From NCBI GenBank assembly GCA_022592445.1, contig JABYQR010000363.1, positions 1 through 43,232 of the forward strand: DNA of 43,232 nucleotides, given 5' to 3'. How positions within the stretch are numbered: position 1 is the first letter of the stretch; every line of letters starts with the position of its first letter. Positions 4,165-37,243 of the stretch are shown here, in pieces. The DNA comes from Cytidiella melzeri. Its lineage: Eukaryota; Basidiomycota; Agaricomycetes; Polyporales; Irpicaceae. The notes beneath the pieces are model-generated. The model made no database searches and had not been told where the DNA came from. It saw only the letters and a list, made by a program, of their open reading frames with translations. A program made the position numbers and the translations under genes.

Positions 4165-4170
4165 CTGACC

Positions 4171-8233: not shown

Positions 8234-8340
8234 GATCAGAGACCACAAAGACAGACATATGGTGTTTAACGAGCTACCTTAGGATTCGATGTGAGGGGTG
8301 CAAAAGTTCGCTTGATGTATTCGACTATGCCCTACGCTTG

Positions 8341-11954: not shown

Positions 11955-13786
11955 ATGTCTGGCGTTTTACCAGACGCAGACATGACTTCACCCCCGTCTC
12001 AACAGTCTCTCGAGTATCTTACCCAGCCGCCTGCAGGCACTCCAGTTGAGTTTAATCAGCCGGTAGTCCCTGGGGCAGCCCCTGTCCCATATTATAATCT
12101 GCCCCATATTCCTCCAACCAATTTCGCCCCTCAACCTCCTCAACCAGACCAATCTGGGCTGACTTCCATCGAAGAGGACGCAGATCTGTGGGGGGACGAC
12201 GTCTCCCCTGAGGCTCCCTATAACACATTCTTGCCGTACGAAAGTGAGACCCAGATCAGTGAGTCTCTCCCGGTATTTGCCGCCACCCTCTCTACTCTTG
12301 CAGCCTTCTTGACCGAGCCAATGGTCATGCACCACATCCGCGACCTCGCAAGGCAACCCAAGGCCTTCAACAACACCATCCTTCCCATCTTCAACAATCT
12401 GCAAAGCCTCGTCAACCAGTGGAATAACACTGTCAACGATGAATTGTCCATCCAGCGCTCGATCACCGCTCCATCTTCTCACAACACCTCAGCCGCAGTT
12501 GCTCCTCCTACCATTTCTTCTCCCCAGCACACTCCACAGACACTGCGCCCGGCACACGTGCTGGGTACCACCCAACGCCCCTTCTGAGTAGGGGGAGTAC
12601 CGACGCACCACACAGTCCAGACCACACTCCCTTTCGCCCCGGCTCACAACCCCCTCCCATTCCCATCGCTAACCGACCGGCCCCCTCGTACGCACAAGTC
12701 GTCAAATCCTGCCCGGCCAATACTCTTCTCAACATAACATCTGCCCTCGCTTCTGCCATGCCCAACGCTCCAGCAGAAGCGTTGCTCACTATGGCCACCA
12801 AGCTGGTGCCAGCTCCGCCCAATCGCGCTGTGCCGAGGCACGCCCCTTGCAACGCGTCAAAAGTTATCACGGTGAAATCAATGAGCGGTGCAGTCAACGT
12901 TTCTGAGATACCTAATGATTCACAGCTTCTCAGTGCGTTCTTGCTGGTGTATGAAGAGGCTAAGATGACGGGTCAACTCCCTCACGACGCCCCAAGCGTG
13001 CTCTTTGTGCGGTGGATCAATAACGCCCTGCAACTACAGTTCCGCACGTCACCCTGCAAGGGAACGGAGGCAGTCATAGAATCGTTCTGGAGAGCATGCA
13101 AGGGTCTGAACGGAGCCACCCCAATATGCTCCAAGTTCCGCTTCCGCAATGGTATACTCTACCGTCACGTTCCTTTTTCTGATCCAGCCAATGCATCATC
13201 TGACGAATCTGTCCAACAGATCAAGAATGCCCTTCTGAGCCAATACGCATGGGAGGGAGTCACAATGATTGGTAACCCCCGCATTCAGATCACCGAGGGG
13301 TCATCCTACGGAACCGTGTTCGCTGACTTTTATGACAGCTCAACCTTGCGATACATGCGACAGATCATGCGCCAAGTGGTGTACCTGAACGGGGCCGCTT
13401 GCCGGGCGATCCAGGCGCAGAACTTTCAACCAGCAACCCCACGCTGCGCGATTTGCCAACGATGGGGTCACCCTGCCGACATATGCCGCTCACAGGTGGT
13501 AAGATGCCCTGTGTGCGCACAGCCTCATGATGAGCAAAACCACGAGCACCTGGCGCCCCTTGCGCCCACCAAGTGCTTCAACTGCGGTGAGCCTCACCGA
13601 GCTGACTCAGCTGACTGCTCATTCTTCCAGCACCGCCGCAACCGCAAGTGGATTCACAACCACCAACCAGCCATGCAACCAGCCCACCAAGCACCACACA
13701 GTGATGTCCGCCAGGTCCCACAGACCAGGCAAACTACGCGCATTGGCATGGGCCGACAAGGCCCTAGCCTCGGCAGAATGACATAG
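11955..13786 (+). pseudogene. LINE ORF1, zinc-knuckle protein, one frameshift
   Basis: The frame starting at ATG 11955 stops at 12585-12587. The protein clearly continues in another frame from about 12584 to 13786, so one frameshift lies near 12550-12585. The N-terminal part is Pro/Gln-rich and disordered. The second part ends with three Cys/His clusters: CAICQRWGHPADIC, CPVCAQPHDEQNH and CFNCGEPHRADSADC. These are gag-like CCHC knuckles that bind the LINE RNA. About 610 aa in total is normal for ORF1 of this type. ORF2 starts 10 bases after the stop. Confidence 0.85.
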
Positions 13787-13796
13787 TAATTCCAAC

Positions 13797-15265
13797 ATGA
13801 CCACCGAAACACAGAACACATTCAGGGTAATCTCTTTTAATGCAAATCATACAGCTAATAACACTGCAGCGGTGCTGCAACACTTTATTCGAGCTGACGC
13901 CATCTTCATCCAAGAACCTTTGTACTCAGTTTTGAAACGAACTCCTTCCTCTACCAACCCCCAGGGCGACGAGTACTTTTGGACACAAGTACAATCTGCA
14001 GACTGGATGCTCCTCGAAGTCACCGACATCTGGCAGGCTAGGGTAGCTTGTTACATCAATCGCAGGTGGGCTGGATCTAACCCGCGCACTCGACATGATA
14101 TAATATCACACCCCCACCTTCTATGCTTCTCTCTCACCTTCGGTCATGAGGAGCAGTTCTTTCTCAACGTCTACAGTCATCCCAACACCCGCGACGCCAC
14201 TCACGCTCTCCTCGCCACACACCGCCTTCCTGCATTCACTCTGGTAGCAGGCGACTTCAACCTCCATCACATGCTTTGGGAGACAGGACAACGAGACGAG
14301 CGGCATGCACAAGACCTCATAGACTTCATGCCGGACATCGGCGTGTCGTTGCTGAACGCACCAGACGTCCACACGCACTTTCCGCACTGGCGCGGATTTG
14401 CACCCTCAGTCATTGATCTCGCGTGGATTGAGTCCGCGATGGTCAACCACCCACTAACAGCCCTTACAGTCGGTGCTGACATGTGCATGGGGTTGGATCA
14501 TGCCATCCTTGCCATTGACATACCTACCGTCCCAGAGCACATTGCCTTCCCGCGCATCACACCCAACTCAGACACGGAGACTGAGTTCATTCTCAACATC
14601 CTTGACGCTGCACATTTGCGCGTCAACGACTCCCTTTCATCTTCTGAAGACATTAAACATTTGCTTACGCTCTTTTTAGATTCCATACAGGAAGCCTTTG
14701 AAAAACACGCGACCAAACCGCGCATCTCCAGCCACTCAAAACCATGGTGGAATGAGGAGTGCCGTGAAGCACTTAGGGTGTTCCGCCATTCTGGTCTACC
14801 GGAGGACCGCTGGGCCTTCTTTCGAGCGGTACAAAAAGCCAAACGCCAGCACTTCGACAGCGTCATTGCCGATATGGCAGCCAAAAAACGTGTATGGGAC
14901 CTCACCGCCTGGGCCAAACCACGTCCCATCTCAACGTTGTCCCACATCAAGGGAAGCGACGGAACCACCCTCTCCTCCTTCGACGAGTTCGTAAGGGGGT
15001 GCTCAGATCAGTTCTACTCAGCTCAGGACCGACCAGTCGACTTGTCCATCGTCGAGGAACTCGAACAGCGGGATGAACGACCTTTCCCCCCCTTCTCCCG
15101 ACAGGAATTGAAGGAGTGCCTGGCAACAACCTCGTCTCGCTCAGCACCGGGCCCAGACCACCTCACCTGGTCAATGATCAAGACCCTCGTGGCTGATCGC
15201 AAATTCGAAGTGTACATCCTATCTGTGTTTAATGCATGCATCACTAACGGTTTTTGGCCCTCACA
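13797..15265 (+). pseudogene. LINE ORF2, endonuclease and start of reverse transcriptase
   Basis: Starts at ATG 13797. The N-terminus is an endonuclease/exonuclease/phosphatase (APE-type) domain: the SFNANHT Asn, the FIQEP Glu, VAGDFNLHHMLW and a C-terminal GLDHA block in place of the usual SDH. It nicks target DNA to prime reverse transcription. The reverse transcriptase begins near RSAPGPDHLTWSMIK and is cut at NGFWPS by the solo LTR at 15266. No frameshift is visible in this piece, so it decayed less than the downstream part. Confidence 0.9.
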
Positions 15266-16001
15266 TGACATGGATAGTCCAACAGACCGGATTTTTCCAA
15301 CATTGTCACAAGTTTATAGCCTTAAGCGCCTATCTAGAGCGCTTATTTTCCGGCTAGGAGTGTTACCAGACCTAACCCTAACCCGGGTCACGTGACATCC
15401 TGCCTTATTTATCAATAGTCCAGACCCAAACCCTAGACTCAGTCTGGAGCGGTTCCAGATCAACCTAGGCTATTGTTCTATTGTTCCTCTTCCATTGACA
15501 GGGATTCCCCAGGGATTCCCCCAGTTTCTATTGTTCCTATTCTATTGTTCTATTGTTCTATTGTTCTAGTGTTCTAGCTCTATTGCTCTCCGTACCCTGG
15601 TCCTTGACAGTTACTCAGGTCCTTGACAGTTACTCAGGTCCTTGACAGTTACCCTGGTCCCTTATTGTTCTATTGTTACTCCAGCCCCACAGTTACTCCA
15701 GTCCCTAGTGTGGGAACTTGTGCACAGACCACACAGCCACAGTATATATAGTAGACCTTACCCTCTCTAGCTCTGCATCTTGACCTCTCTATCATTTGCA
15801 CTGCTAGGTGAGTTACTGCATGTAACTTAGTATCATACCATATTAACTCTGTCATTTGCACTGCTAGTATCCGGCCTCAGTGCCTGCTTGTCTGCTCATC
15901 ATCGACTTTGACCTCGTTGTCGTCGTTGGAGATCTACCCCTTTCCTCTCTACTTCACTCCCTTTTTAGGGTTATCAGCATAGCAGCAGTCGCTCCGCGAC
16001 A
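15266..16001 (+). mobile_element. Solo LTR of the Gypsy family seen at 40022, TSD TCACA
   Basis: It begins TGACATGGATAGTCC and ends CTCCGCGACA, so it has TG...CA ends. It is flanked by TCACA at 15261-15265 and 16002-16006. It matches the minus-strand 3' LTR at 40022-40786 along its length. Inside are a telomere-like CCTAACCCTAACCC followed by GGGTCACGTGA (about 15370), three units of a 19-bp TCCTTGACAGTTACTCAGG repeat (about 15599-15657), and a TATATATA box near 15743. The internal region has been lost by LTR-LTR recombination. Confidence 0.9.
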
Positions 16002-16006
16002 TCACA

Positions 16007-17865
16007 GTTCAAGTCCTCAATCACGGTTGTCATCCCGAAGCCTAAGAAGACGGACTATTTGGTGTTGAAGGCGTACTGCCCGATCGTCCTCCTGAGTTGC
16101 ATGGGCAAGCTCATGGAAAAGATGATCGCCAACCGCATGCAATACGACTGCGTACGCTTCCAACTCCTACACCCCTCTCAATGTGGAGGAGTTCGCCACC
16201 ACTCCACAGACGACGCGGGCCTTCTCCTCGTGCATCACCTTCGGGCTGCTTGAGCGGCTGGTCTGCACTCATCGTGTCTCGCCATGGACATTGCACAGTT
16301 CTTCCCTTCCATAAACCATTAGTTACTCATTGCCATTCTCCGACGACTAGGGTTCCACTCGTCGCTGTGCGAACTCATGGCCGCATACCTCGCCAATCGC
16401 ACCACCCAGTTCCGGTGGGCAGAGAAACTGTCTGGCCCGGTGAACTGCACCGTTGGCGTAGGCCAGGGCTCATGCCTTTCCCCTCCTTCCTCTGCGCTAG
16501 CCATCACACCTGCGCTATTTGCCATCTATAAACTTCTACCCTCCCCAAGTTCCATTCTACGTCTTTTGCTCTTATTCTTTGTTGACAACGGTACCCTCGC
16601 CATTTCTTCTGATTCTCTTGGCACAAATGTCTTTATCCTTAAAAACCTCTACCTTAACATCACAAAAATATTTGCTCGCATAGGAATCATCCTAGAACTA
16701 GATAAACTCGAACTTGCCCACTTCCCCCTTCCTAGGTACCATGGACCTTTACCCTCCCTTTCTATCTCTATCAATAATTCTTCGGTTAATCTTTCCCCCA
16801 AACACATTTGGCGTTATCTTGGCTTCTTCTTTGATTCTCATTTGAATTTCAAGTACCATGTTCGCTTTTACGCCACAAAGGCCCTCAGCACGGTATGAGG
16901 ATACCCCATGCTGGGGAACTCCAACCGCGGCCTCTCTCCAGCACAAAATTGCCTTTTGTACATTTCCTGTGTCCGCCCCATCCTCACATATGGATTTTGC
17001 CTCTGGTTCAACCCTCGCAAACTTCAAAAAGCTCTCATCTCAACCCTCTCACAAGCCCAGTCGGCCACTGCAAGGTGGATACTGGGCGCATTCCGCACAT
17101 CCCCCATCGGTGGAATGGAGATCCTCGCTGGTCTCCTTCCAATCCGCCTCCACCTCCGAAAGATCTTCGACATATCTGTACTTCGCACTCAGTGCCTTCC
17201 CCCAAGTCATCTCGTCACCATTGCTGCCACTCCCAACTCGAATCGCAACACATCCCACTCCATTGGTTTCCCCGTCCATAACATCCTTCCTCATTTGCAC
17301 CTACCCCTCCAACTCCATCATCAAGCCGCCACACCCAATCTCGAACCTATGAGTCATTCGCACCCCAAAATACAACCCGGAAATAGAGTAATAGACATCT
17401 TTGAGTCGCGCATTTCTTTCATTCTTAAGCATCCTAAGAAATCTTCTGACGCCTTTAAATCTTGGTTGGAAAATAAACAGTCTTTTATCAATAGTTTAGC
17501 CACCTCTCCTTTAACTACCTTTGCCTTCTTGGACGGGTCAGCACGCACAGGAACTCCGGACGTTGCCGCAGCCGCATACCGTTTGTACGTTGGAAGGGTT
17601 CTCGTTGCATCCATGGCATTCACGTACTCCAACGCCACGTCTTTCGACGCCGAACTCTTAGCCTTAGCCGCTTGCATTGCGCGCGGCATCAACACCACCA
17701 CCACCGACCTCCATGTCTTCTGCGATAGCGAATCTGCTATTACCACCCTCCTCAAGGTTGAACCGCACTCCGCCCAAGCTATATACATCAGCATAACCAG
17801 CCGACTACGCGCTTGGTTCTCTCTTAATCCTGCAGCGCACCTCCACATTCATTGGTGTCCGGGAC
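16007..17865 (+). pseudogene. LINE ORF2, reverse transcriptase and RNase H, decayed
   Basis: Starts with the VVIPKPKKTDY reverse transcriptase block and continues through NCTVGVGQGSCLSP to the catalytic loop. That loop reads FVDN at 16579-16590 rather than F/YxDD. In-frame stops fall at 16251, 16320 and 16896, and there are frame changes between about 16900 and 17400. The RNase H domain follows in an open frame with FLDGS, DAELLALAA and FCDSES, and is cut after HWCPG by the solo Copia LTR. The reverse transcriptase is not functional; RNase H residues look preserved up to the break. Confidence 0.85.
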
Positions 17866-18408
17866 TAACAAAGTGGAAGTTGTGTGCGAGGGGTAGAGGC
17901 TGTTAAGCTTTGAAGATGAGTCTTATTATTATTGCTGCTTCAGCAGCTCTGCTTATATACATGTCTGTATCTACTTATGTAAGCAACTACTATACATGTC
18001 TACTTCAGCTATTCTACTGTATTACTAAGTGCATGACTCATGCTATGCATGCATGACTCATTGTATGACTAGGCTCAGCACTTGTACCAGAGGTGTACAT
18101 AATGAGTAAATGACTCATGCTAGTACTTGTCCTCATATGTATGCTTTAGGCATCCTCTGGAGTTGTACTACGTGCTTTCCATGTCATTTCCTATGCTACT
18201 AGAACACAGGTGTACATATATGTATAGTACTACTACAACCCATATCTGTACGTCTCAGCTAATGTGATGGTTACTACTAGAGTTTCCATATACGGCTGCA
18301 TAATTCCCATACTATCAAGATTGTGGGAACTCTGCTATCTTAAAGCGTCCTTGTAATAAGGCGTGGGAAACTACATATCATATTATATTATGTTATATAG
18401 TTTTAACA
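17866..18408 (-). mobile_element. Solo Copia LTR, TSD GGGAC
   Basis: 543 bp, nearly identical to the two LTRs of the Copia element at 28200-36771. Flanked by GGGAC at 17861-17865 and 18409-18413. It splits the RNase H domain: removing it with one TSD copy restores CCG GGA CAC GTG (PGHV). It contains three copies of the Gcn4/AP-1-type motif ATGACTCAT. Confidence 0.9.
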
Positions 18409-18413
18409 GGGAC

Positions 18414-18564
18414 ACGTGAGCGTCGAACAAAACGAGTCGGAGGACCAGCAAGCCCGAGAGGCACTGGCAAACCCCAACCCTATACCTTTCACCTCGGTCG
18501 CATGGACCAGGAAAATGGCCAAGATTCGCGCAGCTACTGCGTTACAGCATGGGGGTGAACTGGT
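18414..18564 (+). pseudogene. LINE ORF2, end of RNase H
   Basis: Reads on in the same frame from the PGH of RNase H through SVEQNESEDQQAREALANP to ALQHGGEL. At CTGGT (18560-18564) the frame is interrupted and resumes at 27812. Confidence 0.8.
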
Positions 18565-19289
18565 AGGTTAATAACCGAAGGTTATTAACAAGTATCAATA
18601 ACATGTTATTAACTTGAAAGCTGGCAACATCGGGTTAATAACATTCTGAAGCGCCCTCCCGCCGCCAGCCGTGAAATACGCGCGGTGTTCCGCAAAAATT
18701 GTCAAACACCAAGTTTACCATACGTAGTGTAGGTACAATTTATTATACAGTAATGAAACTTGTAGATTGGTAATAAAAATGAGACAAGTTCTATGCTGTT
18801 CAGTATAGCCCAGCCTACTGTGTTCTGTGCCAAAATCCGTGCCGCAGTTCACCTCCCGTGTTGTCTATCATGGACGAGCTGAGCCAGGAAACCGCGACAA
18901 AGCTTCAGATCCTTCGTAGCCTCTTGTCTTCACTTCCCCACTCAATTCCAGATGGTTGAGATTATTACGGCTTCAAAGGATTTACCCCCAGTTGCGCCAC
19001 AATCGGTGAAACCCAACAATACGACAGTGAACCAGGCGATAGATTTGTTGTCAGCAACGTGACTGACCTTCAGTCACTCGCACTTCGGGATTTGCTCTCC
19101 GATGCACCTCTAGTAGTAGCAAAGTCATCTCAGCCAGTCCCAATTATCCAAAGGGGCCCGCCGCGTAGGTTACAAGAGTCTGACTACACTATGTAGAGCA
19201 TCCAATAAACCTACATTACTTATGTGGAGTTAATAACCGGTTATTTACAGTATAGAACTAGCACGAGCAGAATTCATAACGTTATTAAC
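18565..19289. repeat. Cluster of GTTAATAAC / GTTATTAAC motifs
   Basis: The motif or its complement occurs at 18567, 18581, 18605, 18634, 19229 and 19281. The first two form an inverted pair around GAA. The outer sites bracket about 720 bp with no long ORF. This looks like a subterminal-repeat region of a DNA element: either the left end of the 9.2-kb insertion or a separate MITE. Confidence 0.5.
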
Positions 19290-19893
19290 GTGAAAAACTA
19301 CCTCAAAACAGTTTACCCCCGTGCTGTATACTGCGTGGGCGAACATGTGTAAACAACCTGCATACCGAGGCCACAACTTTTTATGCGGACGACGACCGCT
19401 CGCCCCCAATACACGCCCAGGCAAAGCCTGGGTGCTGAGGTATGTTTTGGTGTGTATGTACTGTACAGTGTTTCATCACGTCGCGCCGATATGTCCCACG
19501 TGAGCATCACTCCGACAAAACAATATTTGATCCTGTCGACATACTCCTCGGGATAGCACACTGATGTCCTAGTCAGATCGTGCCTACACTTGCTCTGTAG
19601 GACCGGTAGACAGTGTGACAACAAGATGAATACAGTTGTAGCGAATGTCCAGCCTTGGTGCTCGCGGTGTGCACCAGGTGTAGAGTGGTTTTGGTTTCCA
19701 GACCGTTGCACCGACAGTATACATTAGAATATTTTTTTTGTCACACCGTCGCACTGACACGATATATTAGAAATGAATGCGATTATGCTATCTGCGACAA
19801 TGGACAAAACGACAGTACACGAGAGCGAGGAAGCGAGAGTATAGCGCAGGCGGAAACAAACACAAACAAGAACAAAGAACAAGCCAACCGCGA
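19290..19893. other. Downstream flank of Y with a hairpin and a short direct repeat
   Basis: A perfect 7-bp hairpin CCCAGGC-AAA-GCCTGGG lies at 19416-19432. An imperfect direct repeat of about 28 bp (CGTTGCACCGACAG..., then CGTCGCACTGACACG...) lies at about 19704-19775. I see no supported gene. Confidence 0.4.
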
Positions 19894-21472
19894 TCAGACC
19901 ACAACAGACCCCTTGAAGTTGCTGACAGCGCACTGAATTGGCAGAAGATCAGCAGGGCCAGAGGGAAGAGCTCCGTGGCGGATGGTGAAGAAGCGGAGGT
20001 CAGCCTTGAGACACAGGTCGAAGTACCTGAGGCGGTGTTAGTATGCCAGTGCACTACCCGAGAGTCAGGGCGAACTCACTCCTTGAGCAGCGCCGCGGCC
20101 TGGGCATCGGAAGTCGACTTCGCCTTGGTCTGGACGGTTGCCTTCTGGAGTTCGTCGTTGACATACTTCCAGAAGCTGTCGTCCTTCTTGGCGTGTGCAT
20201 CGGCGGTGCTTGTGCCTTCGGTGGCGTTGGCTTGAACTTGGCAATGCTTGAGGTAACACTGACGCTGAAGGTTGGGGTTAGCGCAATAGAGAGCGTACTG
20301 ATATGACACTTACAAGGAAGGCGAAGCGAGTATAGTGAGAGCAGTCGGTATTGATATACTCCGGCGCGATCTTGTTGACCATGGCGATAATGTCCTGAGC
20401 CCCTGTGCAGGGCTTGAGTTTGTCCGTGCTCGAGACGAGCGAGGCTGCGATCTGTAGTGTGATAGTAATGATCAGTGTGTGCCAAATTGTGCGCGTCAAA
20501 GAGCAAACGAGTGAACTTACGATGGCTTTGATGTCCAAACGATGGCGGGTCATCGCGTTGCTGACGGTCGTCCGAATGATCCTCCATTTCTCCATGGAGT
20601 GCAGGGTTGCACAGTCGAGCTTGAACCACTCGGGGGACTCTTTGATGAAGTTCTAGAATGTGGTCAGTACCAGCGTATGTAGCATATCGCGCGACTCACC
20701 ATGACAATATCTACCGTGTTCTTGAGGTAGGCTGGGATATTCGGACTCACCATCACAACCAAAACCTGATCTTGAACGTGCGCCTGCAGGTGCTTGAGAA
20801 TTGGTCAGTTGGTGCGCGATGGTCAGCGATACGCACCTTGTAGGACTTGGACTGCAGCGTTTCCGTGGTCTTTGACAAGAAGTGGGCCTTGACAAGGATG
20901 TAAGTCTCAATGCTCCTCTGGTCAGCATTGAGCTGTGATGCAAATGGGTAAGCAATATGGTATCACGACAGGTGAGCACTTACCTGGCTGAAATAGTCAG
21001 CTGCGGTCTCCTCGAGTTGATACTCCAAGCATCTGCTGCGCGCGAACAACAACGCCTGCTTCTTGCGTTCGGGTCCCATATCGGGGGAGCTGTCACGGCG
21101 GCGACAACGGATAGAGCCAACGGGGAAAGGGCCAGTGCTGATTGAGGAGGTGGACTTGGTGCCATCCAATCGAGAAAGGTGTGGAACGTGGTCGAGTCCA
21201 TCGTCGGTCTCGCTAGTACTGGCAGGATGATAACTTAGAGACAGGGGAGGGAAGGACAGGCTTGAGGCCACGGTGGTATTGAGCGGCAGGTGCTCGTTAG
21301 CACGGAAGAGGTCGTCGAAGACACTCATCGAGGGCGTTGAGCGACGAGCAACCAGCGCGACCTGGAGAAACATGACAAGCGCTCAAATCGATATAAGCGC
21401 ACCAATGTTTACCTTTGTTTGGTCAACAATGAGGCCACAGGAAATGAGATTGCGAGAGACGCAAGTGAACAT
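19894..21472 (-). CDS. Gene Y: 404-aa protein of a multicopy basidiomycete family
   Basis: Eight exons join in frame: 21472-21413, 21361-20984, 20932-20837, 20792-20700, 20652-20521, 20451-20314, 20264-20080 and 20026-19894 (1215 nt). All introns are GT-AG. The start at 21472 gives MFTCVSRNLISCGLIVDQTK joined to VALVARRSTPSMSVFDDLF. Later starts at 21373 or 21328 are possible. The N-terminus is disordered with RRRDSSPDMGPERKKQA. The C-terminal half is helical with WFKLDCATLHSMEKWRIIRT and a SHYTRFAFL block. From memory this resembles a repeated basidiomycete family of unknown function. There is no signal peptide. It lies 30 bp downstream of X on the same strand. No disabling change is visible, unlike X. 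Confidence 0.7.
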
Positions 21473-21502
21473 GAGCCTCTATTTCTGAACTACAATACAT
21501 TG

Positions 21503-24500
21503 TTACATATTATTGTTGTTGTTATTGGGCCCAAATGGCAATGCATGGGTCCAGCGCGAGAAGCAATTGAAGGATTGAGGCTCCGGAGGCCCTGAAGGGT
21601 GTGTTTGCTGGTTGATTGGTATGTCTTGAATGGTGTGTGACGGGTGCGGCAGCGGAAATGATGTTTGCGTGTTTATGATGTGTGTTGGGTGAGGAAAGGA
21701 GAATGTAGATTGGGATGGGGGCATGAATGCAGGTGGAAAGTATGGTAATTCCCCGGACTCAGAGATGTGAGGACCTGGCTGTGCTGCTGGCCAAGAAAAT
21801 GAACGCTGCCACTGTGAATCAGCATATGCAGCACCAGTATAGCTCTCATGATGTTGAGATTGAGAGCTGGAAGCGATTGGATTAGCTTGAAAACCTCCGC
21901 CTGCTTGCTTCTGCCCACAGAAAATGAGAGCATGCACTATAATTGCAGGATCTGGAACTCACATCCATTTCTGTTACCTTGCGCTTTGCACCTCGTTTGG
22001 ATGAGCTCCGTTGGGGTGTTTCAAATGGTCGTGCAGTCACAACCCTGCTATCTGCATGTCATGAAAACAATTATTAGTGTGTGTATGGGTGTACCCTTAC
22101 GCACTGGCACTTACCCCTGTTTGCTTCACTCTCTTGAGAGGCAAAAGGAGTGTAGGTACCTGGTAAAGGCTGTGTCATGACGTTGGACACATTGTACGCG
22201 GCTGGAGTGATCGGTGTTGTGATCCTTGTGGTGCTGGAAGGTGGAAGTGCAGCTTTTGATGCAGCTTTTCGAGCTCCCATGTGCTTCACAGCTGCTTTCC
22301 GCACTTCTAAAACTGCTGTGTCAGGGATAACTGGCTCAGCCCGTCGTAGCGATGAAGGAAGAGCTTTAGCAATCTGGTAATAGTTGTGAATTGAGTAGAT
22401 ATTGAGTAAGAAGTGAGGTGTATCTGCATGCTGAGCAATTTGCTTGGTACGATGCTCTGTGAAGGTGCGTTCTTGCCGAGTAGGATGCAATGTCACTCCT
22501 ATGTATTGGGAGTCCGAGTCTGTGCAATTGTGCTGGGTATTGACTGCACATATGATGTCCTGCAATAATCCCTGACTGAGCACATACAGCTGTACAATTG
22601 AGTTCAACATACCTGGAGTGTGAGAAGGGCAGTGTCTTGTGTCAAGGTCAGTCGAGGGACTCGAAGCTTCTCATGTCGTGTGTCCTCTATCTTGAACAGC
22701 TGAACAGAGATGTGAGAAACTTGGGAGACATTTTCCAGTGGCACCAGCATCTCAATAACACGTGCAAACTTGTACTAAGAGCAGGAGAAGATTCAATAAT
22801 AGTTAAACATTTACCAAAACTAAGATAGCTCACCTGATTATCACCATACTTAACAAGAATATCTTTCCCAGTGACAGCTTTATCGCCGTTGATGAGAGTC
22901 ATAGACTCAACCTTGAAGTAGCGTTGTGTGTACAGTCCATGGGCAGCAAGTTGAGCTGAGGGTGAGCTGCTAGTGACTGTTGAGGAGTATGTTTGTGCCC
23001 ATGTAACAGACATCGAATGTCTCTGCTGTGACTTGGGTAGGTGTGCAGATCCTAGCATAATTATCAGTATAGTCACAGAGATAGTGTAGCATCTTCAGAA
23101 TCATACCAGAAATAACAGGCTTGGTTTCTTTATAACCCAGGTGTGCTTTCTCTTCTGGATGATCCCTCATGTAGTCCCGGACTCCATGACCTGCAGATCT
23201 CCAAGTCTTCTTCTCGGCATCATACCAGAATCCACCAAGGGCCACATGCTTGACAGCGTCCTGTGCAGCAAAGGTGTCACAGATTTTCAATGTTTCTACA
23301 AGACTTGCCTTACCAGGCAACGGTATTATTGGGAATATTTAAGCGCTTGTCAAGTGCTTATCCAGTGCTTATCCGGCGTCTATTTAGGCGCTTATCCAGT
23401 GCTTATCAGGCGCCTATTCCGGCGCTTATTCTCAGTGCCTATCAATTGATGCGCTGATGCGCCTCCTGTCTCTGATGCGCTGATGCGCTCCTTTCCTTAT
23501 ATGTGTATCACATGATAGAACTCTCTGGAACCTTGTGGAACTTGCTGGAACTATGATGTCATAGTATAGAACATTCCATTAGATGATGTCATAGTTCTTA
23601 GAACCTTCTGGAAAAGTCTAGCCTTGTCTTAGAACAAGCTAGAACAAGTCTAGCCTTGGAGCTGGGTCATGGGGTCAGGTCATGGGGACAATTGCTATTG
23701 GTTGATTATTGAAGTGGCACCACTAGGGCATAGGGCATGCTTAGTAAGGTAGATTACTTCGCTTACTCATGTAGGTATTAGGGGTCTTAAGGTAGTACCT
23801 GGGGTCCTCCCCTTCATGTATATGTAGAGGCACTCCTGAGGGCATATCCCCTCAGTCTTATCCACTCTGTTGATAAAGGACTACCTTGTACTCTCCAGTA
23901 CTTCGCTCACCACACCTCTTACTCTCTATATCTCTATCTCCCCCTCAAGTTAACCACTTATCTGGTGAGTGTAACCTTAACTGTTACACCGGCTAGTCCA
24001 AGCAATGGGTTAATCCAGTCATCCACGGAATGTGGCTGAAGTAGGCGATCTAGCTCTGTCTCAAGCTGCTTTCGTATTGCATCCTCAGATGCCTGGGAAT
24101 TGTCTGGCCGTGCCTTCCGAAGCTGTTTACCCATCTCAATCAAGGTATGAATGATGCTGTGAAGTCCTGAGTCCCAAACACCAGTGGCCTGACGTGCGCT
24201 GTCAACCTTGCTCTGAGCTCCAGGGAGAACAGACATGCTGAGCTGTCTTCGAATTTCTGCATCTGTTTCATGTGGTGTTCGAAGTGGGCCTTCCTACAGT
24301 AGCACAAAAAATCAGGTTCCCAACCTTGACTCTTGAAAAGAAAATAGAGAGCAAGAAACATACAGAGAATAGCTCAAGAAAGCCTTCTTCTGAGGCTTTA
24401 TGAGCCTTGGTACCACCAACTTTGCAAGTTCGGCAAAAGAGATTACAACCAAGCCCGTTGTGACTGCATTCCTCTGCTTGCATGGGATTGTCGCCACCAA

Positions 24501-26518
24501 AAAAAAAGCCATATGGAAGCAACAAAACCTCTTCGTCATACTTGCAGTCCCAGGCCTCAACACCATCCTGGGCTGCTGAACTATTTGAGAAGTAAGTAAA
24601 AAGTACCAGTATAATTTTTCTGCAGCAGAATTCAGGACTGTACTTACTTTATGGAGTCACAGACAGCCTTTGCAAGCTCTATTGGAGACGCATGTGGTGA
24701 CGATGAGACAAACTTGACCGAGAATTCCTTTTCTATCATCTCCCGTGGCAAGTTTGCGTTAGAGGCGTAGACAACATGATGCTTGTTCCACTGCTTTGAA
24801 ACATTGCCAGAAACATCATCGATGAACACGATGACTGGGGCAGCGTAGCACATCCTGCCCTTGGCAAGTTGTCAAATGGGATTTGGCATTTTTTCGGCGT
24901 ATTTCCGAGACTCATCTGTGCAAATTAAGTTAAGTGAGAAAGTCACTAAGTGGGTTTATTGAGACATACCAGAGAACAGCTGGACATGTTCAGGATATGA
25001 CCCATACAATTTGTCAAAGGGAACCTTGAAGGTAGCCACAGGACATAGCATCTGTCGGTTGCTCACAACAAAACCACGCTATATTTAATCAACCAGTGAG
25101 AAAAAATACATCCAATTGAAGATTTACCTTACCTCAGTCCAAGAAACGCTACGGCCTAATGCTGTAAGTGTCTCTGGTGTGCCTCCAGCAGTTGGGTCTG
25201 GGTCTCGTCGTGAACTACAACGATCCACAAAGAACCGCTCCGGTATAAAATAGGACGCGTCGGATCGCTGAAGCAGCTCCTGAGTGAAAAAGATCTTCCC
25301 TTCAACCCTTACAGCAGGTGTGACAATGCCTTCAGGGCCATTGCGAAGCATCTTGAAACCATGCTGTGCTTCAGACATATACCCTCCACGGTCTTCAGGA
25401 AAGTCGGACATTGCAAATCGAGTCAAAGGATTTGCGTAGTCCTAAAACAGGTTCAGATTGAGGTTTTATTACAAGATATACAATCTGTACCTTTGCAACC
25501 GCAGCCCCAATATCATTGATGTAGAAGATATTGCCGCTAGGACTTACAACCTTCTTTGTGGGATCTCCAACCAGACAACGGAGGTCCTGGCGCATTTTCT
25601 TGATAGCGTACAAGGTCGGAACGTCACGTGCGTGTAACGCCTTGGCCCATCTAAGCATTGCACTGATTTGTGCATCCGAGAACCGCAGACGCGGAGATGT
25701 TAACAAGAGGTCTGTGAGAAAGAGCTGATGGAAATTAGTAGCTATCTGACTGTAGGATCTCACTCATACTTACTGACCTGGACGGCCATGGAAAGAACGA
25801 TGTATCCTGAGCAGATGGCTGACCTGAGTGTGAGAACGCTGGTATGCCTATGATGAATTGTCAGCAGGACATTTTCATCATGTAATACCTCATACCTAGA
25901 TAGGACGGCTCATCTTCTCCTATGGTATCCTGCTCAATAGCGCTGCCTACGTGCTCATCTTGCAAATCATCCTCAAACAGCTCATAGTCCGCATCCAATG
26001 TCTCATCGCGCTCAGCACTATTGGCAGCAAATTCCTCCTCCTCCTCCTCCTCCTCCTCCTCCCCCTCCCCCTCCTCCTCATTCACCTCTAACACGCCAAC
26101 ACTGTGCTCACAACTTTGGGGTTGCCAGAGCTCACTGAATGGGACTGGATCTTGAGACGTGTCCACCAGGTGCTCTTCCTCCTGGAATGTGTCTGAAGAC
26201 TCCTCAATTCCTTGCATTTCTTGCCTTTGTAGTTCTGTATCTTGCAGCTTCGTGCGCTCCATGTTGGCATCTTGTAGCTGCTGACGGTACTGGAGGCGCT
26301 GCTGATGACAGGCTGTAGATTCATGGCCCTGAGCGTAGCGGCGTGCCATTGTGAGTGGAAGACCATTTGTGGGGCTCGGACACAATAAGCACGTCACTTG
26401 GTTCTTGGGGCCTATAGACCACACTGTGTAGAAATTATTGACGTGTGTAGAGAAACAGAGCCAATCTTAAGTACGCACCTGTAGGGTCTAAGCCATAAGC
26501 TGGAGTATTTGCGGACAT
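21503..26518 (-). pseudogene. Gene X: broken zinc-finger protein with the DDVSGNVSKQWNKH block
   Basis: Upstream exons join in frame: 26518-26479, 26423-25896, 25847-25774, 25724-25491, 25441-25133, 25078-24970, 24915-24648, 24580-24364 and 24293 onward. The N-terminus has a Cys/His cluster (CLLCPSPT...H...CH) and then a long Glu run (about 26030-26085). The centre has VFIDDVSGNVSKQWNKHHVV and PYGFFFGGDNPMQAEECSHN. The C-terminal part has NTQHNCTDSDSQYIG and a Gln/Asn-rich tail ending at 21503. From memory this is a multicopy basidiomycete family, often just called C2H2-type. Two lesions are visible: an in-frame TGA at 24872-24874, and an LTR-like insertion (23324-23988) where a conserved middle segment of the family appears to be missing. 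Function is unknown; association with mobile DNA is inference. Confidence 0.7.
23324..23988 (+). mobile_element. LTR-like insertion in gene X
   Basis: About 665 bp of non-coding sequence interrupts X between INPLLGLAG and LPGKASL. Its right end is CTTAACTGTTACA. A TATATGTAG box sits at about 23818 and internal repeats of GCTTATCCAGTGCTTATCC and GATGCGCTGATGCGC are visible. The left end (TATTATTGGG) is not a clear LTR start and no clean TSD is present (GCCGG against CCGTT). This fits an LTR remaining after a recombination that also deleted part of X. Confidence 0.5.
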
Positions 26519-26788
26519 GCTGACTGATGAGCAAAGGTAGCACAATCACAACGTAAGTTGGGTCAGATTGTGCAATACAAGACTGTTTTACTCACCTTTT
26601 GCAATGTTTCTCAAGCTTCGTGCACATGTGGTAGAGAAAGGAGAGGACTGTACGAGCCCATCAATGCGTTTGAGATCGACAGAGAAGCGCACGTGACCGT
26701 GCGAACTCCCTTGGCGTTGGCTTTCTCCCCTTGGTCAACGTTTTGGTCAGCGTTGCCAGCCCTCTCCACATCTCCCACTCTCTCAACC
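26519..26788. promoter_or_regulatory. Divergent promoter region between X and Z
   Basis: X starts at 26518 on the minus strand and Z at 26789 on the plus strand. The 270 bp between should hold both promoters. I see no clear TATA box on either side. An open plus-strand frame here overlaps it but has no matching splice structure. Confidence 0.35.
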
Positions 26789-27549
26789 ATGGCAACCGTT
26801 CTCATGGTCGACCCTGGACTGCACCAACGCGGCGAAGGGGTTGACGACTTCCGTCGTGTTCCCTTGTGGATCGAAATCCACGGCTTATCGCGCGCATTGG
26901 ACTCCGTGGTAAGCTAATGCTTAATTCACGCTTTGCTCGAACACTGACATCCTCACAGCCCATCACAGTAACAGTTGCAGTGCCTCCTGAGGCTGCTGGT
27001 TTTCTCACAGCAACAGTGCGCCCCGCAAAGGTGAAAGGTGAAGAGGCCGATTGTGACTTTGCGGTCACCCTCCCACCGGTAAGTACATTGTGCCTTGCGT
27101 CGAGTGACACGCACCTCACACTTTCAGCACAGGAGACCGACTTGAACTACCCGCTCACGTTTGCAACCACCCTCGATCATTTCAACTGCGAGTCGTTCGC
27201 ATCCTGGAAATTGCTCCTCGACGGTGTCGAGTGTTGGCTCCTCACGACCGTCTTGGACCGAGCACATCCCCAGTGGTCGTGGGGTGTTTCGCTGTACTGG
27301 ATGGCGTTTGTCGGCACCTACCCCGATTTTCCTGCTGGCCCCAACTGGCCTGATTGGAACACCGGCATTCCTTTCGAAGGCAGTTTCCTCGACTCCTGGA
27401 TGGCGCGCTTCAAGCCCAAGCGTGCCCCTGGCCCAGCACAGAAGCTCCTACCTGAACCTGTAGCTGCACGTACGCGCAAGGAGATTCGCAGGGATATTTG
27501 GACGGAAATTCAGGGGCAGCTCGCGTTGTATAATTGTACTTTGATTTAG
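26789..27549 (+). CDS. Gene Z: 218-aa hypothetical protein
   Basis: Three exons join in frame: 26789-26908, 26959-27078 and 27133-27549 (657 nt). The second intron uses an acceptor five bases after the first possible AG, which keeps the frame. The protein has a beta-rich N-terminal half (PITVTVAVPPEAAGF...) and a Trp-rich C-terminal half with PQWSWGVSLYWMAF and PNWPDWNTGIPF. A basic segment (KPKRAPGP) follows. There is no signal peptide, and the single hydrophobic stretch is too short to be a clear membrane helix. I do not recognise the family. It lies inside the 9.2-kb insertion and is divergent from X, so it may be cargo or part of the element. Confidence 0.65.
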
Positions 27550-27806
27550 CTGTATCTACATGTTGTTGTTGTTTCGACTATATCATTTGCTCGTTCTGCG
27601 CTGTCCATTCCAGCTCAAGTAAAGAGGGATCATATGTCTACTGTATTGCCCGAGTCTCTCGCGGCTTCTGCTCGCACTGTGCATGTTCAATCACACATAA
27701 TATGGTGGTCAGATAGTTGAACTGTGCATATAATGATAATTATGTACACTGGATGTCCATTATTGCTGGTCTAGATAAACTGGCTATAGACAGATTATAT
27801 GATGGG
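27550..27806. other. Right end of the 9.2-kb insertion
   Basis: AT-rich sequence without a gene. No inverted repeat of the left end is visible, and no GTTAATAAC motif occurs here. Confidence 0.4.
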
Positions 27807-27811
27807 CTGGT

Positions 27812-28199
27812 TGTCGGAGCGACGTTTCACACCCATCTCAGTAATTTTTTTTTCGTCGCACGCCCATCCCTCAAACCGCCACATTCCCTCCTTTCGTCGC
27901 CGCGACGACATACGCCGCGCTCATATCCGCCCGACATTGCATTTGCTTGGGAGTGTACCCACAAAGGCGGAAAGTTTCTCTCTCGCTTCACCACCAACGC
28001 GCTGGTCGCCAGGGCAGCTCGAGCCATTCTTAATCACGCACCCACTGGAGAGTATCGCTCTCGATTCTTCCCTGCCGAAGCCACTCGCTGCGACCAATGC
28101 AACGTCTTACAATCGCGCATGCACATCCTGAATCAATGTACTCGGTATCGCCGGCCGCGACGCAACTTCCTGGAGTTCCTCAAGAACTCCGCTGACCCT
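27812..28199 (+). pseudogene. LINE ORF2, C-terminal Cys/His region
   Basis: Continues the ORF2 frame with ARAILNHAPTGEYRSRFFP and CDQCNVLQSRMHILNQC. This is the CCHC/zf-RVT-like tail typical after RNase H in Tad1-like LINEs. It is broken after SADP at 28199 by the Copia element, and ACCCT at 28195-28199 is the left TSD. The ORF resumes in frame at 36777. Confidence 0.85.
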
Positions 28200-28760
28200 T
28201 AACAAAGTGGAATATGTGTGCGAGGGGTAGAGGCTGTTAAGCTTCGAAGATGAGTCTTATTATTCTTGCTGCTTCAGCAGCTCTGCTTATATACATGTCT
28301 GTATCTACTTATGTAAGCGACTACTATACATGTCTACTTCAGCTATTCTACTGTACTACCAAGTGCATGACTCATGCATGACTCATGCTATGAGTGCATG
28401 ACTCATGCATGACTCATTGTATGACTAGGTTCAGCACTTGTACCAGAGGCGTACATAACGAGTAAATGACTCATGCTAGTACTTGTCCTCAGATGTATGC
28501 TTTAGGCATCCACTGGAGTCATATGTGCTTTCCATGTCATTTCCTATGCTACTAGAACACAGGCATACATATATGTATAGTATTGCTACAACCCATATCT
28601 GTACGTCTCAGCTAATGTGATGGTTACTACTAGAGTTTCCATATACGGCTACATAATTCCCATACTAAGACTGTGGGAACTCTGCTACCTAAAGCGTCCT
28701 TGTAATAAGGCGTGGGAAACTACATATCATATCATATTATTATATTATATAGTTTTAACA
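28200..28760 (-). repeat. Copia 3' LTR, 561 bp
   Basis: On the minus strand it begins TGTTAAAACTATATAA and ends CCACTTTGTTA. It holds five ATGACTCAT motifs (about 28365-28475), more than its sister LTR, which accounts for most of the length difference. Confidence 0.9.
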
Positions 28761-28772
28761 CTCCCACTTAAC
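28761..28772 (-). promoter_or_regulatory. Copia polypurine tract
   Basis: Reads AAGTGGGAG on the minus strand immediately before the 3' LTR. It is the expected primer site for plus-strand DNA synthesis. Confidence 0.7.
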
Positions 28773-28779
28773 CGTTACA

Positions 28780-31700
28780 TTAGTGAGTGTTTAGATCAAT
28801 TAGACCTAATCTCCCACTGAAGTATGATTGCTTCTGAAATGCCAATGACTTTGTCATGATATCAGCAATCTGTTCTTCAGTTGGAACAGCATATAGTTCG
28901 GCATTCTTATTTTCGACAAACTCTCTAACATAATGATATCGAATGTCAATATGCTTTGAGCGTGACTCTATCTTTGGATTCTTGGTGAAGTAAATAGCAC
29001 CATGATTATCACAGCATAGAATTGTAGGCTCTTGCTGTTTTAAATCCAATTCTTTGAGCACGGTGCGCAACCAATAACATTGCTTGGAAGTTTCGCACAA
29101 GGCCATGTATTCTGATTCCATTGATGATAGAGCAACGGTTTTCTGCTTCTTAGAAGTCCAGGAAATTGCTCCTTCAGCCAACAGAAATACATATCCTGTT
29201 GTCGAATGTCTGTCATCTTTATTCTCAGCCCAGTCTGCATCCGAATAACCAATAATACCAGCATTACTTGATCCATTATACTTGATCGCATAGGACTGCG
29301 TTCCAAGCAAATATCTCAGTATATATTTAGCTGATTTATAATGGTGGTCAGTTGGATTTGACATGTACTGTGAAAGACGTATGACTGCATATGAAATGTC
29401 TGGTCTAGTACCAATCATAACATATATAAGCGTGCCAATCAACGCTTGATACTGTCTCAGTAAACCAGAATCTGCTTTATAGTCAGAATCTGCCTTCTGT
29501 AGTACAGCACCTGAAGGTAATGGTGTCCGAGCAGGATTAGCATTTGCCATATTAAATCGTTTTAAAGCCTCTTGAATATACGACTCTTGGTCAAGTAGAA
29601 TCGTTTTAGCTTTACAATCTCTCTGCACACGCATGCCTAGAATAAGCTTAGCTTCTCCTAAGTCACGCATCTCATAGCGATCCATAAGATTCTTCTTAAG
29701 TGCAGACATAGCAAGTTTACTATTTCCTATCGGAAATATATTGTCAACATATAGAATGAGAATTAAATTCCCCCCTTGTTGCCGATACACGTAAACACCA
29801 GCATCTGAATGAATCCGGTCAAAGCCTAATTCTATCAGAGTGTTATGAATTTTGATATTCCATGTTCGTGAAGCTTGTTTAAGTCCATAAATGGCTTTCT
29901 TAAGCAAACAAACATGGTTCTCCGTTCCCTTCTCCACGAAACCTTCTGGTTGTTCCATATAGATTTCTTCATCCAGTTCGCCGTAAAGGAAAGCTGTTTT
30001 CACATCCAATGCCTCGATTTCCCAATCTTCGAGTGCAGCTATAGCTAGTAGCATGCGTATGGATTCAAAACGTGCGACTGGTGAGAAAGTTTCTTGATAA
30101 TCAATTCCTTCAACTTGGGTGAATCCTTTTGCAACAAGACGCGCTTTATATCGACCATCAGACTTTATGGTGAAGACCCATTTGCATTTCACAATTTTGC
30201 GTGATGCATCTGGTCGTCGTACAAGCGTCCAAGTTTTATTCTTCATTTGAGAATCAATTTTGTCTTGTGCAGCAGCAAACCATTGATCCCGATCATCTCT
30301 TTTCATTGCCTGCTTCCACGTCTGTGGATATTCATTGATTGAATAAGCAGTAATTGAATTAAGAGTCTCGTCATCAATTTCTGCAGAATCATCATCATCA
30401 GTTAAGCCTCCTGATAGAGTTTGATGTTCTGGACCCGGTTCAACGGAAGGTGATCTCGAGGGTTGACGTGATGACGTTCCTGATCGCAAAGGTATCCGTA
30501 ATCTGGATGGCCCTGCAACCGGAGATCTCGCGCGTATTCTCGAGTTCCATTCAGCTCTCAAACGAAGCTCATTTTGTTCTTCCTTTTTGTCCTTAGCCAC
30601 TTGCTTTTCTAAAGCTTTCTGAATATCCACCGGCCGCATGGAAAGTTTAGGATTTTTTCCAGCAGTTGAACGTTTGTTCTGGTTGATAGGTGGTGGCAAA
30701 GGTGGTTTAGGCTTAGGTCCTCGTTTGATTTGTGGTTGTGGTTCTTTGTCAAGAACCGGAGCTGAAGGGAATTGCTGCTGTTGTCGAGAAGGATGAGTAG
30801 GTGCTTGGTGCTCTGGATGATCATCATCTCCATCATCAGAATCTTGATGACCTTGTTCATCATTCTCTTCAAAAGGTGAAAAATTATCGTGTGGAGGAAC
30901 AGTGTTATTATCACTGTTATCGCCGACTAAAGGTTGTTTGGAAGGAGTAATATCTTTACGATACGGGAAATGAGTCTCGTCAAATACTGCATCGCGAGCA
31001 ATGACGATTCGCTGTTTATCCCAGAACCGGTAACCCTTTACACCCGGTTCATATCCAACGAATATCATAGGAGTTGCTTTTGGTGACAACTTGTTCTGAC
31101 GACTCTTGATCGGTACGTGGACGTATGCACGACATCCAAATACACGAAGCATTGAGATATCTGGTTTTATACCCAGAAATCTCTCTATAGGTGTCTGCCA
31201 GTTTAATCGTACATTAGGTAGACGGTTATTTAAATATACCGCTGCTTTGCAAGTAAGCTTCCAGAAACCATTTGATAACCCAGCTTGCTGACGCAATGCT
31301 TCGGCTTTATATTTTATGGTCTGTTGCCATCGCTCAGCTCTACCATTTTGTTGTGGAGTATACGGTACAGAATTTGTAATTCTATTCCGTGTTCCTTCAG
31401 ATAATCCTTGAACTCATTATTAATGAACTCTGTTCCACCATCACATCTGAACTTCTTCATCTTCTTTCCTGTTTGGTTTCCGGCCCATGACTTGTATTCT
31501 TTGAATCTTGTGAACGCTTCATCTTTGTGCTTGAGATAATAGAGCATCCCATGACTAGAAGCATCATCAAGACAAGTCATACCGTATTTGTAACCATCAA
31601 TAGAAGTTGTAGAATATTCAATGAGATCGGAATGAGTTAATTCAAGGACTTCTGTAGCTCTCGACATAGATGGTGGAAATGGTTGTCTCTTTCCTTTTCC

Positions 31701-33244
31701 AACTTGACATCCGTGACAAGGAGAAATTGTCGATGGAATAGGAATCTTTTCTTTTAATCCCTTTGTTCCTTTGTGAAGATTTTCGACAATCTTATTCCCT
31801 GGGTGTCCTAGTCGATTATGCCACAATGTATAATCATTACGACTAACTTTATTAATTGAGTCTATCTTCCTGACTAGACGTCCTTTAATCCAATAAAGTC
31901 CGGCATGATCAGGTTGACCATTTATAATCTCTTTTCCTTCATTATAAATTGTCCATCCTTTCGATGTAACACTGCTGGTGCATCCTTGTTGCAGTGCTCT
32001 AGAAGGAGAAAAGAATCTTGTAGTCGCATCTGGTATATAGAGGACATTGTTCAAAGTTGTGCGATGTATTTTATCTTTCACAAGGACCGTGTCAAGTACA
32101 ACCGTTCCTTTTCCCAATATTTTGACAGTCATATCTTTACCTGCTACAGAGCATGTACCTGCTACCGTTGCTGGTTGATACGAGATAAAGTCGTCAATTT
32201 CATTGGTTATGTGACTAGTAGCACCACTGTCGATGAGCCATTCAACGCTTTCAGTCTCACACGTGGAATACAGAGAAACGTTGATGATTTCATTATCGTG
32301 CTCGAAGACAGGTTTGGTATCTACTTGAAGATTATTTACAGTTGCTTTGTCTTTGCCTTTGCCTTTGGACTTCTTTCGTTGTCCTCCTTTCTTTCCTTTA
32401 TTCTCCTTGTTACCCTGCTTGTTGTTGGTAGAAGATCCTTGCTGATTATTTCCATTACCGCGAGACTTGTTCTGGTTAGGTTTCCCTTTATCCCAGTGCT
32501 GACTCGTAGTATGGTTAGAAAGCCCACACTTCTTGCATTTTTCCTTGGTAAACGCGTGGTCTGCGTAATCCGATTCGCATTTTCACTGTTTGAACCCTTT
32601 CGACGTAACTCTTCCGCAAGTATCTTGGGGATGAGCGTGTCAAACTTAATTTCTTCGGGTTTTGCAACAGTGCCAATGTATGCAGAAATGGCGGTTTCAT
32701 ATGACGTTGGTAAAGCCCACAAAAGAATATGAACTTTAATTTGATCATCAAGGTCTAATCCAGCAACTTTGGTATCTCCAATCTTAGTACGGAAGCCTTG
32801 AATTTGTACGTTCATATCCTTAGACTCATCAAAAGTTGAGCTAAGTAGGTTTCTGAACGCAACAGAGCTTGCTAAGACTGATGTCTTCTCAAAATCTGTT
32901 TTCAACTTCTTCCACACTGCGGAGGCCAAATCCTCTCCTTCAAGATAGGATTGCAAAGTAATGTCAAGGTAAATATTGAAATAAGCTAAAGCGCGTTGGT
33001 TCCGAATTTCCCAATCCTTAAGTTCCTTCTTCTCATCAGAAGTGTCAGGAGGTGCAGTAGTCGTACCAGAACCTGAACTGGTTGCAGCTGCTGCGGGTAA
33101 GGTAGGTTTTGTTTCGGTTCCATTCACGATTAACCAAGTGTTTGAATATCTGAACAAGCCAATCATAGCGGTGGACCATTTCTTGTAGTTTGAACCGTCA
33201 AAGACGATCATTTGACTACCGCTAATCTTTCCTGGTTCAGCCAT
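28780..33244 (-). pseudogene. Copia gag-pol polyprotein with two frameshifts
   Basis: Gag starts at ATG 33244 (MAEPGKISGSQM) and has the FDGSNYKKWSTAM block. A frame change near 32585 precedes a CKKCGLSNHTTSQHW zinc knuckle. The protease has WLIDSGATSH. The integrase has LWHNRLGHPGNK...CHGCQVGK (HHCC) and a D,D,E core with FINNEF. A second frame change lies near 31375, after which the C-terminal half is open to 28780. The reverse transcriptase has TRPDASRKIVKCKWVF and a catalytic loop that reads YVDN at 29740-29751 rather than YVDD. RNase H has SSMESEYMAL and KHIDIRYHYVRE. The enzyme set is recognisable but inactive. Confidence 0.9.
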
Positions 33245-33757
33245 TATAACCAAAAGCAATCAAGGATCAAGTCGTAGTACGGAATGTACACTTCAGAGAT
33301 ATGAGGTACTACAGGTGCAATTACAGGTGATGACGTCTGTTTAGAAGTTTCTTCTAGAAGATCTTCGACTTCGGTGTTTTCTCCGGAATCTGAGTTCTTA
33401 TCTAGAGATTGACTGGATGTGTCACCAATGTAAGTTGTGCCTGTGATGATCTCTGATGGTTCCTGATCTATTACTACTTCTGGTTCGTTGTTCTGTGGTT
33501 CTGATTCTCGACGATTTGCTAAGTCTAGAAGGTATGAATTGACTAAAGCAGGTACGTCAAGATGCGGTACAGATCCTATGTAACCTCTAATGAGTTCTTT
33601 CTGATGTTCAAAAGGTTCAAGATACCGGTCCTGTGTTACCAATGCAATAATTCTATAAACTTCGTTTAAATCTGCTTCAAACGAATATCTATAGCGGTTA
33701 GGGCACGGTTGTGTTTCACAGGGTCTTGCAACACTGTCGACGTCACAAAAGTTCTCT
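33244..33757 (-). CDS. Copia accessory ORF 2, overlaps the gag start
   Basis: An open frame from about 33757 to its TAA stop at 33246-33244, roughly 170 codons. It has no internal ATG. Its last base is the first base of the gag ATG (TAATG). The product is acidic with ELIRGYIGSVPHLDVPALVN and a Ser/Thr/Glu-rich tail. With no ATG it is probably an exon continued from ORF 1 upstream, or it is translated by another route. I do not recognise a family. Confidence 0.45.
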
Positions 33758-34026
33758 GATCAAAGAGGTGCAATTCGGAATTTGTACACGCTAATGAAGC
33801 CAGAGTACAACGTTACAAACTATGTAAAGAAAAGTCATAAAAGTTCGTCAGAATGCGCTACGTGATGGTCGTGACTCGAAGCAGAACAAGAGAGAGATAG
33901 AGAAAATATACAAGTACACTACGGACTACGCTAATGAAAATGACCGTTTGTAAAAGTATAAATGTACACATCGCGATATTTTATAGTATACAGTGCGCGG
34001 TATAGTTCGATTTGCAGAGAGTCCGT

Positions 34027-37194: not shown

Positions 37195-37243
37195 ATGCCT
37201 CCCACGACGAACAGCCTAACACACTCCTGTCTCAGAGACCAAC

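What the first reader, a model, noticed from the sequence alone, without database searches (positions are those of the whole stretch)
18565..27806. A 9.2-kb gene cassette (X, Y, Z) inserted precisely inside a LINE: candidate unknown mobile element
LINE ORF2 stops at CTGGT (18564) and resumes after CTGGT (27811) in the same frame, so the segment arrived as one unit or at one site. It carries intact Y, broken X and unknown Z, and no transposase, integrase, recombinase or helicase that I recognise. X and Y resemble, from memory, families repeated many times in mushroom genomes. Repetition plus a precise insertion suggests that X and/or Y belong to an undescribed class of mobile element, with the X block DDVSGNVSKQWNKH a possible catalytic core. 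Part of the sequence may instead be stacked unrelated insertions.
Basis: partly seen in the sequence, partly recalled or inferred. Interest (0 to 1): 0.9.

Follow-up and report, generated by a model that had tools for sequence, protein, structure and literature searches.

The report
RAG1-like jumping element in a mushroom
The 9-kb insert is two separate mobile elements sitting inside an older LINE of a fungal genome; the larger is an 8.5-kb three-gene jumping element, present in several full copies in that genome, whose main gene is predicted to fold like RAG1 (the enzyme that cuts antibody genes) and likely moves the element by cut and paste.

The parts
12443..28198 (+). LINE host copy (ORF1-like 12443-13786, ORF2 from 13782; outer limits by reading of frames), cut by later insertions; LINE pieces near the finding: 17800-17865, 18409-18542, 19331-19412, 27956-28198
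   Evidence: blastn to uninterrupted copies L006-L008; Exo_endo_phos_2 E 4.2e-14, RVT_1 E 9.9e-4, below its cut-off
17866..18408 (.). solo LTR in the LINE, 96% like the LTR at 28200
   Evidence: repeat pair; LINE matches overlap by 5 bases at its borders, i.e. a 5-bp duplication
18543..19328 (.). first insertion: 786-bp element with terminal inverted repeats and 8-bp target duplication (hAT-like by the length of the duplication), flanked by TACTGCGT at 18535-18542 and 19329-19336
19410..19411 (.). TA target duplication, left
   Evidence: empty site in C15 and C223
19412..27955 (.). second insertion: 8,544-bp DNA transposon carrying Z, X and Y
   Evidence: common ends in sister copies with unrelated flanks; complete sister copy C85
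19412..19424 (+). left terminal inverted repeat CACGCCCAGGCAA
   Evidence: 11 of 13 to the right arm
27943..27955 (-). right terminal inverted repeat, ends ...GCTTGGGAGTG
27956..27957 (.). TA target duplication, right
   Evidence: GTGTA at the border in 19 of 19 right ends read
19897..21328 (-). gene Z; matches at 19897-20034, 20076-20312, 20305-20457, 20500-20658, 20819-20953, 20972-21328; function not assigned
21503..26518 (-). gene X, about a dozen exons by my reading: predicted RAG1-fold DDE transposase; broken in this copy
   Evidence: relative's model
24779..24820 (-). X block DDVSGNVSKQWNKH, predicted first catalytic strand (aligned first Asp)
24872..24874 (-). in-frame TGA in X in this copy
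   Evidence: the C85 copy reads through here
23275..23988 (.). 714-bp solo LTR inside X, 39 other full-length copies among the 40 candidates scored; unequal flanks AAAGG/CCGGC; stands in place of about 690 bp of X that hold the predicted catalytic Glu
26789..27549 (+). gene Y, 3 exons by my reading, open here; divergent from X; function not assigned
28200..33759 (-). copia-type LTR retrotransposon inserted at the end of the LINE (neighbour, not part; far end not determined)
   Evidence: RVT_2, gag-type and integrase families; LTR repeat

Best explanation
Window 19412-27955 is one of at least nine two-ended copies of a DNA transposon of about 8.5 kb with CAC...GTG ends and TA target duplications, likely moved by cut and paste by its own gene X, which is predicted to encode a RAG1-fold DDE transposase of the CMCT clade. 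Shown: common ends, TA on both sides, the empty site, matches to all three genes in every two-ended copy. Predicted: X folds like the RAG1 core (RNase H-like domain, zinc-binding C(2)C and H(3)H, catalytic Asp-Asp-Glu), perhaps with a BAH-like barrel before the catalytic domain. Inferred: X binds the CAC ends, pairs and cuts them, and joins them to the two strands of a TA site with a 2-bp stagger; Y and Z are accessory proteins (end binding, regulation or host contacts). The window copy likely cannot make a full X now, because of an in-frame stop and because an LTR stands in place of the Glu-bearing part; it could move only with X from a sister copy. Order of events: LINE first; then, in unknown order, solo LTR, 786-bp element and transposon; then the LTR inside X.
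Against: No sequence-level link to RAG1: a profile search of PDB sequences found 0 at E<=1, and hhalign probabilities are low (5.1, 9.0 and 1.3%; but the yardstick Plavaka against Transposase_21 with the same shallow alignments gave only 0.2%), so the clade rests on motifs, fold and ends. The fold is a prediction for a relative (P0001, Trametopsis cervina), not for the window's X. I saw no CACTA, Plavaka or ESTA structure in the lists, so 'closest to RAG1' means among solved folds. Four of 63 rows have Lys at E654; E657, or D315 for the second Asp, could be catalytic instead. 9 of 29 Y loci and 9 of 35 left matches do not reach the common ends. Y and Z have no Pfam family and, by protein search, almost no relatives outside this species. 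No transposition was observed.
Confidence: 0.86

Rival explanations
1. The element is a plain fungal EnSpm/CACTA or Plavaka family that I have misjudged, and X is merely a divergent member of those families.
For: Weak profile alignments in the right register to Transposase_21 and Plavaka; CAC...GTG ends as in fungal EnSpm; 2-bp duplications are reported for animal CACTA relatives (PMC1636069, passages), so the length of the duplication alone is a weak test; one relative carries a UniProt name beginning 'Transposase family Tnp'.
Against: No match to either Pfam family for 9 full relatives scanned at E<=10; none of the 129 Plavaka or 20 Transposase_21 matches in this genome lies within the nine two-ended copies; TA duplication, not the 3 bp of fungal EnSpm; ends are neither CACTA nor Plavaka's TGT..ACA or CATCA..TGATG as given by Kojima 2025.
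Confidence: 0.2
2. [not shown]
For: Same duplication (TA) and same kind of resemblance to RAG1 (paper section read; here).
Against: ESTA sequences are in supplementary files that could not be opened; no TET/JBP or other Pfam domain was found in the X, Y and Z sequences scanned, though the paper's definition rests on TA and EnSpm-likeness, not on that gene.
Confidence: 0.4
3. X is a captured or domesticated host gene; the element is moved in trans by another transposase that recognises the CAC ends.
For: X was not recognised by Pfam; this genome holds many diverged X genes, whose ends I did not check.
Against: X has the conserved triad and zinc residues and lies inside the same ends in 9 of 9 two-ended copies; a second family at 48-73% X identity keeps X, Y and the same TA|CACGCCCAG end.
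Confidence: 0.06
4. The X-Y-Z repeats are segmental duplications, not transposition.
For: Three right ends (C123, C155, C612) share one flank.
Against: 17 distinct right flanks and 21 distinct left flanks (by eye) with exact ends, TA on both sides and an exact empty site.
Confidence: 0.02

Closest known systems
ESTA (EnSpm-like transposons with TA duplications, rust fungi; Kojima 2025, PMC12730594)
   Same: TA duplication; transposase resembling RAG1; fungal
EnSpm/CACTA (Pfam PF02992 Transposase_21)
   Same: CAC...GTG ends; motif order D, GD.P, CxxC, HxxxH, ERY
   Different: no PF02992 match; 2-bp TA instead of 3 bp; no CACTA word
Plavaka (Pfam PF18759)
   Same: fungal CMCT; C(2)C and H(3)H; weak alignment in the same register
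   Different: no PF18759 match; other ends
Transib / RAG1-RAG2 (RAGL)
   Same: fold of the core by prediction; CAC at the start of the end repeat
   Different: 5-bp duplications and RAG2 (kelch) in RAGL; X and Y are divergent and Y shows no Pfam match; possible BAH-like insert in X
hAT elements
   Same: 8-bp duplication and short inverted repeats in the 786-bp element
   Different: no transposase was sought there, so only the length of the duplication speaks for hAT

Membership tests
CMCT clade | DDE triad on an RNase H-like fold | tested here: met
   conserved D247, D334, E654; fold match to RAG1; predicted, not assayed
CMCT clade | C(2)C and H(3-4)H between second D and E | tested here: met
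   C353-x2-C356 (65/65, 66/66 rows with a letter) and H633-x3-H637 (63/63, 63/63); definition read
CMCT clade | 5'-CA..TG-3' ends and 2-5 bp duplication | tested here: met
   CAC...GTG and TA
ESTA | TA duplication in an EnSpm-like/RAG1-like element | tested here: met
ESTA | groups with ESTA in a transposase tree | not testable with these tools
   ESTA sequences are in supplements, for which no look-ups were allowed
EnSpm/CACTA | Transposase_21 domain (PF02992) | tested here: not met
   no match for 9 X relatives scanned at E<=10; none of 20 PF02992 matches in the two-ended copies
EnSpm/CACTA | 3-bp duplication (as in fungal EnSpm) | tested here: not met
   TA, 2 bp; a weak test, since 2-bp repeats are reported for animal CACTA relatives
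Plavaka | Plavaka domain (PF18759) | tested here: not met
Plavaka | ends TGT..ACA or CATCA..TGATG | tested here: not met
   CACGC...GAGTG; definition read
Transib / RAGL | 5-bp duplication | tested here: not met
   TA; definition from passages of PMC7204232
Transib / RAGL | RAG1-like core fold | tested here: met
   [not shown]
RAGL | kelch RAG2-like gene convergent with RAG1-like gene | tested here: inconclusive
   [not shown]
hAT (786-bp element) | 8-bp duplication with inverted repeats | tested here: met
   this copy only; not found for L002-L005
hAT (786-bp element) | hAT transposase | not tested
   no coding sequence sought in longer relatives L002-L005

The most novel reading that the evidence does not exclude
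Mushrooms harbour their own large RAG1-fold transposon lineage, separate from EnSpm, Plavaka and Transib, in which a histone-reading BAH domain was built into the transposase so that the element steers itself by chromatin, and in which a divergent partner gene (Y) plays the part that RAG2 plays beside RAG1.
Probability: 0.14. Interest if true: 0.82.

Novelty: new variant of a known kind. Interest (0 to 1): 0.56.

Why it matters
Hundreds of mushroom proteins now called 'hypothetical' are, on this evidence, likely transposases of a RAG1-fold clade that no Pfam model covers, so mobile DNA in these genomes is counted as genes. The lineage has nearly identical copies with clear ends, which makes it a practical system for testing how RAG1-fold enzymes choose TA sites and use partner proteins, and it adds a branch for the question of where RAG1 came from.

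Full report
What is there. The window is contig C294 of an unnamed 49.7-Mb assembly. Database proteins from Cytidiella melzeri that match X, Y or Z sit on contigs of 15 distinct lengths. Thirteen of them (118,051, 91,076, 12,808, 104,278, 114,658, 158,598, 14,221, 72,389, 62,154, 115,678, 198,994, 53,390 and 60,576 bases) equal the lengths of C17, C84, C633, C50, C28, C612, C606, C155, C198, C26, C401, C233 and C204; the other two (6,105 and 88,730) are not among the contigs whose length I saw. I therefore take the host to be Cytidiella melzeri, Polyporales, Irpicaceae.

Two insertions, not one. LINE copies L006 (C223), L007 (C15) and L008 (C295) match the window at 17800-17865, 18409-18542, 19331-19412 and from 27956/27957 on in one continuous run. 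The first gap of this finding, 18543-19328, is a 786-bp element with inverted repeats and the 8-bp duplication TACTGCGT; copies elsewhere (L002-L005) share its left part to about window 19009 and then differ, and I did not find their right ends. The second gap, 19412-27955, is the element with X, Y and Z. A solo LTR at 17866-18408 and a copia element from 28200 are further insertions in the same LINE.

Ends, duplication, empty site. One search listed 70 Y matches and cut out 30 loci, one of them the window's own. Of the other 29, 20 run to the same last base (window 27957, give or take 3) and 9 stop earlier. I read 19 of the 20 (not L055): all have GTGTA at the border, with 17 distinct flanks, C123, C155 and C612 sharing one. 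Of 35 left-end matches other than the window's, 26 start at the same base and 9 inside; I read 21, all TA followed by CACGCCCAGG or, once, CACACCCAGG, after unrelated sequence. The exact 26-base empty site with a single TA is present in LINE copies C15 and C223, and two more copies differ by one base. The two arms agree in 11 of 13 bases, which 0 of 20,000 random border pairs reached. TA makes up 5% of dinucleotides in the window.

Copies. Nine copies have both ends: window 8,548 bp with both TA; C85 8,523; C299 8,524; C97 8,520; C101 8,524; C330 8,459; C50 8,466; C123 7,453; C445 18,568, so with other DNA inside (spans worked out by hand). All nine have TA on both sides and matches to X, Y and Z between the ends. 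C97 and C101 agree at 99.9% over 2,530 bp with different flanks. A second family (C243, C705, C512; X 48-73%, Y 41-43% identical) has the divergent X-Y pair about 2 kb apart in C243, while in C705 and C512 X and Y matches lie 11-13 kb apart; two of its three Y-side ends that I looked at (C243, C705) read TA|CACGCCCAGATG after unrelated flanks, and the third match stops short of the end.

X. The gene runs on the minus strand from 26518 to about 21503. In this copy it holds an in-frame TGA (24872-24874), and a 714-bp solo LTR (23275-23988; 39 other full-length copies among the 40 candidates scored of 1,000) stands where C85 has about 690 bp of X with the stretch STERYESFNHVFR. The LTR's flanks AAAGG and CCGGC differ, as expected if two LTR insertions recombined and took the stretch between them (inference). 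C85's X itself has a frameshift in one exon as I read it; other copies were not read through, so I do not know which copies are whole.

What it is not. X does not match PF02992 or PF18759, none of the 20 and 129 matches of those families in this genome falls within the nine two-ended copies, the duplication is 2 bp and not 3 or 5, and the ends are neither CACTA nor Plavaka's. I therefore do not file it as EnSpm, Plavaka or Transib. ESTA fits in duplication and RAG1 likeness, but its sequences were out of reach.

Mechanism. X likely binds the CAC ends, pairs them, cuts, and joins the ends to a TA site with a 2-bp stagger. CAC at the tip of the end repeat is also the rigidly kept part of RAG and RAGL ends (PMC7204232, passages read). 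A BAH-like barrel in X (model about 97-227) is a tentative prediction; if right, it could tie insertion to histone marks.

Literature. Searches (PubMed Central, open licences only): no title or abstract start in the listings names this family; the nearest is Kojima 2025. Passages of PMC1636069 report 2-bp repeats at animal CACTA relatives and Transposase_21 relatives in fungi in 2006. Transib elements in fungi are stated as known in passages of PMC7204232.

Noticed in passing
23275-23988: Solo LTR with unequal 5-base flanks that stands in place of about 690 bp of X: looks like recombination between two LTR insertions with loss of the stretch between them.
   Followed up: partly
17866-18408 and 28200-28667: Two LTRs of one copia-type family, 96% alike, one solo in the LINE with a 5-bp duplication, one at the end of the copia element that abuts the LINE end.
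   Followed up: partly
L002-L005: Relatives of the 786-bp element share its left 460-470 bp and then differ; their right ends were not found in the fetched DNA, so they may be longer, possibly autonomous.
   Followed up: partly
C123, C155, C612 (L044, L061, L062): Three X-Y-Z right ends share one and the same flank: duplicated region, haplotype copies or insertion into a repeat.
   Followed up: no
P0119 (Heterobasidion irregulare): An X relative with a weak C-terminal SAP domain match (E 5.6e-4, below the curated cut-off), a DNA-binding module.
   Followed up: no
P0088 (Rhizoctonia solani): An X relative carries the database name Valine--tRNA ligase, probably a wrong or fused annotation.
   Followed up: no
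window 3057-4193, 7283-8278, 34027-35499, 37220-38659: Long open frames without any Pfam match at E<=0.001.
   Followed up: no
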